NCBI GenBank assembly: GCA_963922205.1
Contig: CAWUHX010000166.1
Coordinates: forward strand, 682,001 to 746,000
Length of the DNA: 64,000 bases
Reading direction: 5' to 3'
Source of the DNA: Romanomermis culicivorax
Lineage: Eukaryota; Nematoda; Enoplea; Mermithida; Mermithidae
Shown here: positions 55,562 through 60,680 of the stretch, piece by piece
How the letters are laid out: each line of letters begins with the position of its first letter
Position numbering within the stretch: position 1 is the first letter of the stretch
The notes under the pieces: model-generated
What the model was told of the DNA's origin: nothing
Seen by the model: only the letters and a program-made list of their open reading frames with translations
Database searches by the model: none
Made by a program: the position numbers and the translations under genes

Positions 55562-58500
55562 TTACTGCTGCTGCCGGGGGTGTCTATAGATTCCTTGAGG
55601 CCTTCCTCGATAGTATCCCCTCTGGCCTGGTTGGCCTCGGGTATGACCTCCATCTTGGCCTTGGTTCTGGCCTTGTTGGCCTCCACCACATCTACCAAGT
55701 GGATGGAAATTTGGATTGTGAAATTCGGCATCTGGGTCTTGGCCTTGGTGTTGCCAGTTTCCCTGGCCTCCGTAGGGTTGCTGAGGGCGCCCTCGGAAGC
55801 CTCCTCTGACTTGACCTCCACCATACCCCCATCTACCCTGGTTTGGGGCAGGGTTCGAGAATGCATTGTCTCTCCCCTGTTGTCTATGCATTGAGTCACT
55901 GCTAGTGGAACTGCTATACTGTTGCTTTTGAGTCCAAAAGGTTGAATTTAAAGATTTTGAGGATGTTGATTGAGAATATGAAAGTGGACTTTTGTACGAA
56001 GAACTAGCGGCACCACTATATGACCTCTGGCTGGTCAAGTTTGATAGTTGCTGCGTCGCCAGCTGCTGCTTCTTAGGTGGTGGAAGTCTGGGGACTTTGA
56101 ACTTACCTGGGCTCTTGGCATTTGTTCGCTGATATTTATCAGCTTGCGCTTTGTCATCGCCTGGTGCCTTCCTTTTTACACCCAACTGGTTTAACCTTTG
56201 TGAGGCCATAAAGATATACTGATTGAAGGCTGCAATGTAGAATTCATCTACCCGGTTTCCCTGAGCTTCGAGGACTAGTTGTCTGTTCCCAAACGAACAC
56301 CTCTGGGCATACCACCCACCAATTGCTGTTGGCGTGATCAGAGGGAAATCCAACTGTAGGAAAATCATTAAGGTCACGTACCTAATGGCCGCAAAGACAT
56401 CTGAAGCATCGTAATCCTGGAGCCATCTGGGAATAAGAGCTAAAATTATCCATTCCCAAATTTCCTCAGGGACACGTTCTCCCTCAAACATAAACCCACC
56501 TTGCATTTGAAATTGCTGGCGGTAATTGTCACGGATTTCAGCTATGGCATCATTGACCATTCTATAAATTATTGGCCGTTCTTGGTGATCAAAAGTGAAA
56601 TAATTGGCAACCTCTGGATTTTCAAATGAGATCGGTCCAATCATGTGCCTTTGTTCTCTTTGCCACTCCCAATAATCAATCAGAATTTCTGCTAATTGAC
56701 CAGGAGTGACAAATTGCCCTGGTTTCCTTGTGGGTCTACTACTAACCACATTCAATTTGACCTTCTTGATCAACTTTTCCTCTGATTCAAAATCAGGCTT
56801 TACCAACACACTTCCCGCCAGTTTCTTACTTTTGGCAGTATAGCTTGTGGGAATGGACCTAGTTTTGCAAGAAGATGTACTAACCTCTCCGCCAGTTTTC
56901 GATACCATTTGCATCTGAGTGTACGAGGCAGTGGACATTGTCGTTCTATCCGATTTCATTTGACCCTGGGAGCTCTCCATTTTCATTTGACTCTTTGAAG
57001 TCTCCGTCTTCGTTTGACTCTTTGAAGTCTCCATTTTCGACTTTGGCATTGTCCATATTTCTGGGGTGGTCGTCTCCTCGGCCGTGTTGTAGGCATCGTT
57101 TTCCCAGCTGGTTACGGGCATTCCTTGCTGTTCCTGTTCCTGGGCTGCAAGTCTATGTGCTCTGGCTTTACTTAATTGCTGTCGGGGTCTTACCTTTTCT
57201 CTGCCTAAGTGGTGGATAGATTTCTCCGACATACCTTCAGCCAACATCTGCTGAACCTTCTCAGGAGAATACATTCCCCGGATTCCTTCCTGAGAAATTT
57301 TCCCCCATTTCATCTGCTCTGTCGCTGCTATGACTGAATCTGAGCTATCATCGGCATATGCCTGCTCCTTCAACCTCTTTTGCATTGCCCTCTGGCACAG
57401 GAATTCCTGCTGGGCCAGTCTTTTCTGTTCTTGAATTTTGGCCTGAAGGGCCTCTGGCCTGGCTTGCAAGTCAAAATCTTGAGCATCCTTAGCTTGGACA
57501 GGTATCTCCTGGGATGCTTGCATCTTATCCAGTCTGACATCAATTCCGGACATTTTAGTCCCGGCTTCGTCTATTTGAGTTTGGATTTTTTCCTCCTCAA
57601 TCTCTTGTTGCTGAGTTTTAGCCTCCATGGAGTCTTTTTCCTCCACTGTTCTCTCTCAGATTCCAGAATTTCACCCTCTTCTTCCTCCTCCGAGCTGGAC
57701 TCGGAGTCTGTATTCGGTATCTTGGGCAACAGTTGTTTTATTTTAGCTGGTAAAACAGCTGGTGCCAGAGGCATGGTTTGCATGATGGTTACTACTTCCA
57801 GTTCAACTTCTGCTGGTTGTTGCACTTGAGGTACTGGAGTCGGCTGTGCCACCGCTGATGGCATTGGTGGCCGCACCACGACTACTACTGCAGCTGCCTG
57901 CGCAGCTCCAGTGTCCAAAGCTGGTTGTTGTGTTTTGACCACCGGTGCCGGTGCTTGCGGCTGTGTCTTAACTTGTCCTGACCCTCCAGCTTGCACTGTT
58001 TGGGATACTGAAGGACGATTTAAAGGTACTTTGGAGACCAACTAACTGGCTGGGGTATATGTTAGCAATTACCCAGGCATATCTGAAACCAATGTTCTCT
58101 CCAATAAACTATTGCTGACAAATTCCGGTCTGATCTCGAGCAAATTTTGCGGTGCGTATGCCATTGGATAATCGGTCGGATGTGCATCTTCCCTCATGGG
58201 ATACCGCAGTCCCGGTGTCAAAGTCTCCAAGCCTATATAGTAAAAGGCTACATAATAGTAATAATTTACCTTATAAGCTTCGTCCTTTAATAACGATTTA
58301 TAGTTGCCAATTTGTAAAGTCTCTTCCGCTTCTCTAAATCGTAGCGGGACAAACCCAAACCGATTCTGCCACGTGTATACGTCTTTCTTGGTTAGAGTTC
58401 GGGGTTCTGACAGCGCCAACGTAGCTGCTAATTCTAAATAGTGAGCCAGGCGGTCAGTCACCTGACTTCCAGGACATGCGCTTAATCGCTTCCTGGCCCT

Positions 58501-60680
58501 CCTTACTATAACTGTTTAGAAACTTAAAATTTAGCAATGCGGATGTTTCGAAGGCGCACTCTGCTCTAGAATAAGGCCATGCCAAATGATAGGCCAATGG
58601 CATGGATCTGCAGACCTGCTCTAACTTCATGAAGTTTCCCTGGTCTAACATACTCGATATTTTGGCCAAGTTTGGCATATAAAAGTTTGTCTTATAGACT
58701 CCTTTATGACCTTCTATATACCCACTGGGCAGTGATTGTACCGGGACCACGACTGGGACCCTGACCCTGAGAAACCCTGGGTAAAACCCCGACCCAGAAC
58801 CCTGAACAGGGGCTAAATTTTAGGAGTCGGGGTTGGGCGTTTTTTTGGGGGTAGAACAGATTATTGCCTGATAATGATCGCGCAACAGATTATTGCCTGA
58901 TAATGCCGAAAAGCTCATTTGATTGTTTTATAACCAACGTGCTGTGGGGTACAGTTTGGAAAAAACGATTGAAGAATACGAGAAGGCTCAATCGATTGCC
59001 CCACAGCAAAACACTGATGACAACAATTAGTATTGATTGAGTCGAGGAATACTTTTGAATTGAATGAAAATGAATAAATTTTTGATGAAACTCCCAAGTT
59101 ATTTTTGAAACAATTGAATCATTATTCATGATTATTTTCATCTCTAAATACCTAATTTCAGGTTTTTTCAACTGGGACTCCGACCCCGAAAACCGGCGTT
59201 TGTCAACCCCGACCTCGACCCCGACTGGGGGCAAAATTCTGCCCCTGTACGATCACTACCACTGGGTAATGGTTGTTACGCAGAAACGCTTCTTCTGAGA
59301 TCTCATCAGGCTTCCCGGCTTGTTGCCAGTATAGCTTAGCATTTTTGTACAACGTCAACAATATTTTACCATCTAAATCCCGATAAGACTTACCACTTTT
59401 GAGATTTTCCAGTATATCTCAGCCGATATTACTCCAGTCTGGCATTCCAACATCCTGGATGTCATCGGGATCACTGTCCTCACTGTACCCATCATCTTTG
59501 AGTGGCTTGCTATCCCTTGGGAGTAGCGGGTAAAAACCACTCAGTAATGGGACCTGTCATCCATGGGCCTGATTGCATTCCATAGGTGTGGTATAATAAC
59601 CCGTGTTATTTCCCTGCATTTGTACTGCACAACGGTTGTACATCTCACATTTCATCATATGGTACACATACACCATATTAGGCTGTACCTGATCAGTTTC
59701 CATTGCTGGGGAACCTAGTCCCATTTCTCGATTCATGTGCCCTGGAATTGCTGAATACTGGTGGTAAAAATGAAGGGCGATTATGTTGATCTGTTTGGGC
59801 TCCATCCTGTCATGATAAAAAACCTGCATCTGCATCAGCAAGTAATCGGCCATGCCATAATGGATAGGGGCAAACATGATCAATAAGGAATAATATGCAT
59901 CTAGAGCTGCATATCTGAGCTCTTCCAGCAAAATACCTCTTTTGGCAAACGGATCACGGTTCGCCTTCAGTGAGAAGTCATACTGGTAGGGACCAATGTC
60001 TATTAAGTAAAATTTCGTGAATAATCCCTTTAACGGGAAGGTTTCAGGACAGAAACCCATTTGAAAACATTTTTTGTCCAGGTTCGGTTCAACCATGGTC
60101 AAGGGGAAACAATCTATATCAAAGTAATGGCCTTTGGTCTTCCTAAGATGTTCCCCTAAGGGGACAGTTTTGTCCCTATCCTTATTGTCTCACCCTAATC
60201 CGCATACGTTATATATGCTGACAAGATCTTCCAATACCGAATATCCCGCAAGTAACTTGTCTGAGTTGAGAAAATCATGAATACTTACTCATTCCTTCTC
60301 CATAAGGCGGGTGGTATCGATAACGTACGTTTGACCATTGGTTAGTGCGAAGCTTTGGTATCGGGCAAATTGTTTTCCCATGGGATTATCGACCTCTCTC
60401 GTTTTAAACAAGGCGGGGACTTTTTCCTGATGGACTTTTTCTACATCAAATCCACAAACTGGGTATCCTCTGAAGATTGACACTTCTCAGACATAGTGGA
60501 GTATCTGGCTAGCTTTACCCATGTCTACCAGGATTGGTTCCTTGGGATTAGCTGGCCAGTATCCAAAAGTGGCTTTGAACCACTGCTCCAGTTCATGGAT
60601 CCTGACGACCCTCTTGATGTTGTAATCTAAATATTTAAAGATACTATAAGTTTGGTTATTTATTCCCATTTTTTCAGCAT
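55562..60680 (-). pseudogene. ORF3 body of element B: DEDDy 3'-5' exonuclease-like protein with RGG tail
   Basis: Minus strand, with almost the whole exonuclease region in one frame. Motif I is CGFDVEKV (Asp 60447-60445, Glu 60441-60439), motif II is VLEDLVSIY (Asp 60228-60226) and motif III is RYAALDAYYSLL (Tyr 59913-59911, Asp 59901-59899). Spacing is 73 then 109 residues. QFARYQSFALTNGQTYVID after motif I and LLAGYSVLEDL fit the exonuclease fold of RNase D/WRN. Then follow a Pro/Gln-rich middle, an acidic SESSSEEEEEGE stretch, a charged region, the conserved helical region (about 56720-56240) and a Gly/Arg/Gln-rich tail to TAA at 55562. Stops (all TGA in the exonuclease half), a frameshift near 57640 and a hAT insertion inactivate it. 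Confidence 0.8.
58730..59258. mobile_element. hAT MITE inserted in ORF3 of element B
   Basis: Ends CAGTGATTGTACCGGG and (right) CTGTACGATCACTA are imperfect inverted repeats, flanked by identical CCACTGGG at 58722-58729 and 59259-59266. 529 bp, non-coding, rich in CCCCGACCC. It interrupts the ORF3 reading frame; removing it mentally leaves the host frame with the 8-bp duplication. Confidence 0.85.

What the first reader, a model, noticed from the sequence alone, without database searches (positions are those of the whole stretch)
55562..60680. LTR retrotransposon accessory gene (ORF3) encodes a DEDDy 3'-5' exonuclease-like domain
Seen: downstream of integrase in element B, one frame carries GFDVE, a buried-strand segment (QSFALTNGQTYVID), LLAGYSVLEDL and RYAALDAYYSLL, in that order and spacing. 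Known: D-x-E, then Asp in a GxxxxxDL context, then Y-x3-D in a YAAxDAYY context are the catalytic signatures of RNase D/WRN/EXD-type DEDDy exonucleases. Inference: an element-encoded nuclease, possibly for RNA or cDNA end trimming, proofreading, or blocking a host small-RNA defence. I know of no Ty3/Gypsy family described with such a gene in the env position, but cannot search.
Basis: partly seen in the sequence, partly recalled or inferred. Interest (0 to 1): 0.95.

Follow-up and report, generated by a model that had tools for sequence, protein, structure and literature searches.

The report
Retrotransposon gene for a 3'-5' exonuclease
Jumping genes that copied themselves many times through the genome of a mosquito-parasitic worm carry what looks like their own RNA/DNA-trimming enzyme, kept intact by selection; rotifer jumping genes are known to carry a similar enzyme, and its job is still unknown.

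Summary
Confirmed, with corrections. The window lies in the Romanomermis culicivorax (mermithid nematode) genome. Two related LTR retrotransposons, A (+) and B (-), both carry the exonuclease-like ORF3 after integrase. B is a dead copy (six in-frame stops, all TGA); A is frameshifted and lacks one catalytic Asp. Open copies are common: 59 of 87 scored B-type and 122 of 139 scored A-type matches have no stop in the matched part; full ORF3 is typically ~1,529 or ~1,445 aa. Two further LTR families in this genome have ORF3s over the Pfam PF01612 cut-off. The A/B type reaches PF01612 directly only below the cut-off (A-type, E 7e-4; B-type none), but firmly through family 3 (BLASTP E 6e-19). D, E, D, Y, D line up in all four types. 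Silent changes far outnumber others (dN/dS 0.007-0.28; neutral simulations 0.50-0.66). So it is a genuine RNase D/mut-7/WRN-like domain under selection. The novelty claim fails: bdelloid LTR retrotransposons with DEDDy ORF3 were described in 2017. New here: a nematode, high copy number, long ORF3 with RGG tail, and one family that lacks a detectable reverse transcriptase yet keeps the exonuclease. Function is not shown; no fold could be predicted.

The parts
59850..60630 (-). Element B, DEDDy exonuclease-like domain of ORF3 (from the conserved TTAG at the D-Y-N motif to the helix after motif III; end approximate); interrupted by TGA stops
60439..60453 (-). Element B motif I, GFDVE (Asp 60447-60445, Glu 60441-60439)
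60223..60249 (-). Element B motif II, AGYSVLEDL (Asp 60228-60226)
59890..59916 (-). Element B motif III, RYAALDAYY (Tyr 59913-59911, Asp 59901-59899)
55562..60630 (-). Element B ORF3 in full (exonuclease, linker, conserved domain, Arg-Gly-rich tail), broken by stops and frame changes
55562..57655 (-). Element B ORF3 C-terminal open frame, 697 aa, homologous to element A 47327-48565, ending in an RGG-rich tail
   Evidence: 28% over 341 aa, E 3e-32
62109..62648 (-). Element B integrase C-terminal part
   Evidence: PF13683 1e-4 (22.4 bits, below the curated cut-off)
54295..54895 (-). Element B 3' LTR; the 5' LTR lies outside the window (C166:750653-751705, with an insertion), 96.0% and 92.6% identical in two pieces
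36109..36612 (+). Element A 5' LTR (504 bp, 92.7% identical to the 3' LTR)
37459..39096 (+). Element A gag-like frame, Arg-Gly-rich near its end
   Evidence: Retrotrans_gag only at E 0.09, below the cut-off
39097..40029 (+). Element A protease
   Evidence: PF13975 2.3e-8
40030..41004 (+). Element A reverse transcriptase
   Evidence: PF00078 1.2e-36
41067..43289 (+). Element A RNase H and integrase
44642..45400 (+). Element A exonuclease-like domain, spread over more than one frame: GFNTE at 44816-44830 (first Asp of the family motif missing), GYNLVTDL with Asp at 45018-45020, RYSALDAYY with Tyr at 45330 and Asp at 45342; end approximate
47327..48565 (+). Element A ORF3 C-terminal conserved domain
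48746..48937 (+). Element A ORF3 Arg-Gly-rich tail
49692..50195 (+). Element A 3' LTR

Best explanation
ORF3 of a large Ty3/Gypsy-type lineage in Romanomermis culicivorax is an accessory protein whose N-terminus is a genuine RNase D/mut-7/WRN-like DEDDy 3'-5' exonuclease domain and whose C-terminus ends in an RGG (RNA-binding-type) tail. It is probably made from a spliced RNA whose 3' splice site lies just before the domain. It most likely works as an RNA-tethered 3' exonuclease that trims or removes 3' ends of nucleic acids in or around the element's ribonucleoprotein, as an aid to replication or RNA processing. Shown here: domain identity by homology, five catalytic residues kept, position after integrase, abundance, purifying selection. 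Inferred: splicing, RNA binding, catalysis, substrate and role. The figure below is for the domain identity with an RNA-directed role in the broad sense; identity alone I put at about 0.93, the narrower aid-to-replication role at about 0.45.
For: Four ORF3 types with D, E, D, Y, D in register: all five intact in 18 of 20 B-type, 8 of 10 A-type, 9 of 12 family-2 and 5 of 5 family-3 loci examined, window copies included. PF01612 over the cut-off for families 2 and 3; one A-type copy E 6.8e-4 over profile positions 30-165 of 173. A-type to family 3 BLASTP 6e-19. hhalign of A, B and family 3 against family 2: E 9.1e-6, probability 83, 225 columns. Family-2 profile: 8 PDB matches at E<=1, 7 named WRN, mut-7 homologue or Rrp6 and one uncharacterised protein (3cym) that itself matches E. 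coli RNase D. After integrase in A, B, family 2 and the one family-3 locus looked at. dN/dS below the lowest of 200 neutral simulations in 14 of 16 pairs. AG directly before the domain in 29 of the 29 A/B-type loci where the place was found, of 30 (TTAG in 28, TCAG in 1). RGG tails in both window elements and in one other copy of each type.
Against: B-type ORF3 alone has no Pfam match at E up to 10. Profiles with A/B-type sequences reach a PDB exonuclease only at E 0.25-0.28, and other listed matches there are unrelated (2 of 3; 6 of 7, ribosomal protein L1). The PDB matches of family 2 rest mainly on the motif III region. Of five family-3 frames scanned singly, from four loci, two pass the PF01612 cut-off, two match below it and one does not match. 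No fold could be predicted. Loci were chosen by similarity to a protein or profile, which favours conserved copies and lowers dN/dS; lower-ranked family-2 loci still give 0.05-0.14. Two of five A-type pairs do not fall below the neutral minimum. No expression or activity data.
Confidence: 0.6

Rival explanations
1. Counter-defence: the exonuclease removes 3' ends of host small interfering RNAs or their precursors. Clade I nematodes are reported to silence transposons by RdRP/Dicer siRNAs rather than piRNAs, so a 3'-5' exonuclease could blunt silencing.
For: PMC4323106 (passages): no Piwi in R. culicivorax; in Trichinella, of the same clade, the siRNAs are not protected at the 3' end and LTR elements are enriched in CpG methylation. 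CpG loss in the window elements fits past methylation. A family without detectable RT keeps the gene, so the role need not be tied to its own RT.
Against: No small-RNA or activity data here; CpG decay suggests silencing is not escaped in the long run. Siblings without the gene were not compared.
Confidence: 0.25
2. DNA-end function: the exonuclease edits or proofreads the 3' ends of cDNA before integration.
For: PMC5408684 (passages) notes that WRN and polymerase proofreading domains of this class act on single-stranded DNA. The gene sits next to integrase.
Against: RGG tail points to RNA (inference); a family without detectable RT keeps the exonuclease.
Confidence: 0.15
3. Dead enzyme used as an RNA-binding or decoy protein, like Maelstrom or EXD1, or as a mut-7 mimic in the host silencing complex.
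For: Weak Pfam score of the A/B type; best PDB match of the A/B profiles is a mut-7 homologue (not significant).
Against: All five catalytic residues kept in 40 of 47 loci examined.
Confidence: 0.1
4. Chance motif pattern or a one-off captured host gene.
For: No direct PF01612 match for the window pieces.
Against: Same gene after integrase in four element types and many copies.
Confidence: 0.02

Closest known systems
Bdelloid rotifer LTR retrotransposons Juno and Vesta with DEDDy ORF3 (PMC5408684, 2017)
   Same: RNase D-like DEDDy exonuclease in ORF3 after pol in retrovirus-like LTR elements; the authors say ORF3s are typically expressed from spliced messages.
   Different: Bdelloid motif is DEED and families are low-copy; here DEDD, at least 87 and 139 scored places per type, ORF3 of ~1.45-1.53 kaa with RGG tail, strong purifying selection, nematode host. 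Their neutrality test, in the passages seen, covered env-like and GDSL ORF3s, not the DEDDy ones. Relatedness of the two ORF3 sets not tested.
Athena-type Penelope elements / Terminons
   Same: Carry DEDDy exonuclease ORFs as accessories (PMC6431247 and PMC5408684 passages).
   Different: Penelope-like class, telomeric giant elements.
mut-7 homologue, WRN exonuclease, RNase D, Rrp6 (PF01612)
   Same: Catalytic motifs and order; PDB matches of family 2.
   Different: Host enzymes. In the A/B type 71 residues lie from motif I Glu to motif II Asp and 108-109 from there to motif III Asp.
Maelstrom and EXD1
   Same: DEDD-nuclease derivatives linked to transposon control (as cited in PMC5408684).
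   Different: Catalytically inactive, host-encoded.

Membership tests
PF01612 DNA_pol_A_exo1 (RNase D-like DEDDy exonucleases) | Profile match at or over the curated cut-off of 23.6 bits | tested here: inconclusive
   Family 2 (41-51 bits in the 5 ORF3s scanned) and family 3 (30-32 bits in 2 of 5 frames scanned): met. Window A-type 19.9 bits (one open copy), B-type none: not met directly; homology shown through family 3.
PF01612 DNA_pol_A_exo1 (RNase D-like DEDDy exonucleases) | Asp and Glu in motif I, Asp in motif II, Tyr and Asp in motif III | tested here: met
   all five in 18 of 20 B-type, 8 of 10 A-type, 9 of 12 family-2 (one miss is lack of coverage) and 5 of 5 family-3 loci. Window B has all five, window A four.
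PF01612 DNA_pol_A_exo1 (RNase D-like DEDDy exonucleases) | RNase H-like fold with the residues clustered | not testable with these tools
   Structure prediction switched off.
PF01612 DNA_pol_A_exo1 (RNase D-like DEDDy exonucleases) | Metal-dependent 3'-5' exonuclease activity | not testable with these tools
   Bench assay needed.
Ty3/Gypsy LTR retrotransposon | LTRs and order gag, PR, RT, RNase H, IN | tested here: met
   Element A: LTRs; PR, RT, RNase H, IN in order (gag only weakly). Placement by a tree not done. Family 2 lacks a detectable RT.
Bdelloid-type DEDDy ORF3 retrotransposons | DEDDy ORF3 downstream of integrase | tested here: met
Bdelloid-type DEDDy ORF3 retrotransposons | ORF3 forms one clade with the bdelloid ORF3s | not tested
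   Bdelloid sequences were not at hand.

The most novel reading that the evidence does not exclude
A retrotransposon-encoded 3'-5' exonuclease that attacks the siRNAs of a nematode lacking piRNAs, helping these families reach very high copy number, with an RT-less relative that keeps the exonuclease while borrowing reverse transcriptase from autonomous elements.
Probability: 0.15. Interest if true: 0.85.

Novelty: new variant of a known kind. Interest (0 to 1): 0.55.

Why it matters
The bdelloid paper left open whether the extra ORFs help the elements: it found no clear link to copy number and no sign of selection in the ORF3 types it tested (env-like and GDSL). Here a DEDDy ORF3 is kept by selection in several lineages, two of them abundant, and in one family without detectable reverse transcriptase, in a worm reported to lack piRNAs. 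That makes 'what does a retrotransposon gain from its own exonuclease' testable by sequence and by assay.

Tried and rejected
Pfam and PDB searches with the window's own pieces gave no exonuclease match; this looked like a refutation until other copies and families were found. phmmer of an open B-type domain (P0033) against PDB gave three protoporphyrinogen oxidase entries at E 2.7 and no exonuclease. NCBIfam gave only matches far below the cut-off (ribonuclease D and polymerase-exonuclease models) for family 2 and none for P0033. PHROGs gave only weak matches of unknown function and Rfam nothing over the cut-off in 35500-64000. Profiles with A/B-type sequences against PDB: best hit a mut-7 homologue at E 0.25 and 0.28, not significant. 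hhalign with A/B pieces alone against family 2: probability 14, E 0.002, too weak alone. The idea that TGA is a sense codon was rejected: open relatives have ordinary codons in that frame and other copies are also broken by TAA and TAG. The idea that the ORF3 C-terminus is a second gag was not supported. Protein search with family 2 scored 8,000 candidates and found one UniRef protein, a gene model with further exonuclease domains.
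Full report
Where it is. The window is stretch C166:682001-746000 of a genome of 359,112,060 bases in 595 contigs. PMC10879605 (passages) gives the Romanomermis culicivorax v2 assembly as 359.1 Mb in 595 scaffolds. All 13 hits of the exonuclease piece, and 14 of 15 hits of the longer query, carry the label R. culicivorax; the label of the fifteenth (P0018) is cut off in the listing. The host is therefore this mermithid nematode.

What is in the window. Element A (+ strand) runs from LTR 36109-36612 to LTR 49692-50195 (504 bp, 92.7% identical) and carries gag-like, protease, RT, RNase H and integrase frames. 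Element B (- strand) starts at its 3' LTR (54295-54895) and continues beyond the window to C166:751705. Both have ORF3 after integrase. The motifs of the finding are all in B, in one frame, but that frame has six stops, all TGA. Element A has the same motifs spread over more than one frame and lacks the first Asp of motif I that open relatives have. CpG is depleted in both elements and not in the first 36 kb, as expected where transposons are methylated; PMC4323106 (passages) says, citing others, that R. culicivorax has the DNA methylation machinery.

Other copies. Searching the own genome with B's frame (X at stops) gave 3,329 first-look candidates, of which 87 were scored and all 87 matched, the window copy included; 59 of 87 have no stop inside the match and 37 of 87 are listed with an open frame of 1,400 aa or more (my counts from the listing). 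The A-type search, with a piece that begins just before motif III, gave 2,690 candidates, 139 scored and listed, 122 of 139 without a stop inside the match (my count). The tool says such counts are lower bounds; the first-look figures are not confirmed copies. In the LTR pairs checked, one B-type copy has 99.2% identical LTRs (618 bp) and one A-type copy 98.2% (496 bp), so these two insertions are young.

Is it an exonuclease. PF01612 finds 80 places at E<=1e-3 in the genome, all over the cut-off. I examined 20 of the 80: 14 belong to a second LTR family ('family 2'), 5 to a third ('family 3'), 1 looks like a host exon. Family-2 ORF3 is 608-614 aa in the three fully open loci fetched, PF01612 E down to 1.7e-13. 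Its profile has 8 PDB matches at E<=1: seven are named WRN, mut-7 homologue or Rrp6, and one uncharacterised protein (3cym) matches E. coli RNase D; these matches rest mainly on the motif III region. Family 3 has PF01612 E 1.5e-7 and 4.5e-7 in two of five frames scanned; two others are below the cut-off and one has no match. One open A-type copy matches PF01612 at E 6.8e-4, below the cut-off; B-type ones do not match. The bridge is pairwise: A-type against family 3, E 6e-19 over 235 aa; B-type against family 3, E 9e-13 in a small database. One alignment of A, B and family 3 puts the three motifs in register, and its profile aligns to family 2 with E 9.1e-6, probability 83, over 225 columns. 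Against this, profiles with A/B sequences find PDB exonucleases only without significance. The five catalytic residues are all intact in 18 of 20 B-type, 8 of 10 A-type, 9 of 12 family-2 and 5 of 5 family-3 loci; the misses include window element A itself and one family-2 locus that does not cover motif I.

Context. In the one family-3 locus looked at, the gene follows integrase, and the RT is 57% identical to that of A. In family 2 it follows an ORF with a zinc knuckle (seen in one of two scanned), RNase H-like and integrase zinc-binding parts, between LTRs 95.9-100% identical in four loci. No RT was found within the element in 4 of 4 loci with a home-made profile of two RT sequences, nor by Pfam in the two ORFs scanned; the one strong hit, in L010, lies outside its LTRs. 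A very divergent RT could be missed. So one young family seems to keep the exonuclease without an RT of its own.

Selection. In the exonuclease domain, open B-type copies compared with L021 give dN/dS 0.007-0.092 (L018, L019, L020, L026, L030, L032), family 2 0.018-0.139 where dS could be computed, family 3 0.12-0.28 likewise; dS was saturated in 7 of the 22 family-2 and family-3 pairs. Five A-type pairs give 0.086-0.198. Neutral simulations with CpG-rich mutation give means of 0.50-0.66; 14 of 16 pairs tested lie below the lowest of 200 simulations; of the two others, both A-type, one equals the lowest value as printed and one lies above it. The loci were ranked by protein or profile score, which biases dN/dS down; four lower-ranked family-2 loci (L034, L042, L043, L045) still show 0.05-0.14 where computable.

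Expression and the rest of ORF3. Upstream of the domain the open frames printed have no Met, except L055. An AG lies directly before the D-Y-N motif in 29 of the 29 loci where the place was found, of 30 A/B-type loci checked (TTAG in 28, TCAG in L016; L051 not found). Eight fetched UniRef gene models (P0011, P0013, P0015, P0017, P0019, P0021, P0025, P0026) switch from other sequence to this motif at its first residue (read); P0018 does not. This suggests a 3' splice site, as the bdelloid authors state for their ORF3s. The C-terminal part of ORF3 has a conserved domain shared by A and B without Pfam match over a cut-off and ends in an Arg-Gly-rich tail, in the window elements and in one other copy of each type; by general knowledge such tails bind RNA.

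How it may work. I favour an RNA-tethered 3' exonuclease serving the element's own ribonucleoprotein (about 0.45 for that role). The strongest rival is counter-defence: PMC4323106 (passages) reports no Piwi in R. culicivorax, and in Trichinella Dicer-made siRNAs without 3' protection. Nothing here separates these.

Literature. PMC5408684 (abstract, passages and Discussion read) describes DEDDy ORF3 in bdelloid Juno and Vesta and in Athena elements, says DEDDy exonucleases had not been reported in retrotransposons before, and considers 3' processing or a mut-7-like role. PMC6338049 (passages) lists the DnaQ-like exonuclease as an accessory domain of LTR elements. PMC6431247 (passages) repeats it for Terminons. 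Among the papers listed for nematode, gypsy/Metaviridae and exonuclease terms I saw none on such a gene in nematode elements (titles and abstract starts only, apart from the papers named; most subscription journals are not held).

Noticed in passing
L010, L011, L012, L013 (G000 C69, C101, C440, C344): Young LTR family with zinc knuckle, RNase H-like part, integrase and exonuclease ORF3 but no detectable RT: a likely non-autonomous element that keeps the exonuclease.
   Followed up: partly
G000:C158:182213, 187991, 193769: Three PF01612 matches spaced exactly 5,778 bases apart; the first is a family-2 fragment: a tandem array that includes transposon DNA.
   Followed up: no
window 36000-64000 against 1-36000: CpG observed/expected 0.53 in the element half and 1.05-1.07 in the rest, a sharp footprint that fits transposon-directed methylation.
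   Followed up: partly
window 11034-11973: Frames that read like exons of a host NF-YA (CBF-B) transcription factor (recognised from memory, no call).
   Followed up: no
window 12614-13592: Possible host methyltransferase-like exons (from memory, no call).
   Followed up: no
window 52852-53719 (-): Frames that read like the C-terminal end of a LINE reverse transcriptase between the two LTR elements (from memory, no call).
   Followed up: no
P0031 (UniRef protein, R. culicivorax): Gene model that joins other exonuclease domains (PF00929, PF13482) to part of family-2 ORF3; either a prediction artefact or a fused gene.
   Followed up: no
window 8792-9201 and 23444-23846: Dispersed repeat pair of about 400 bases, 94-97% identical.
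   Followed up: no
window 37459-39096: Element A gag-like frame has Arg-Gly-rich stretches like the ORF3 tail and no Pfam zinc-knuckle match.
   Followed up: no
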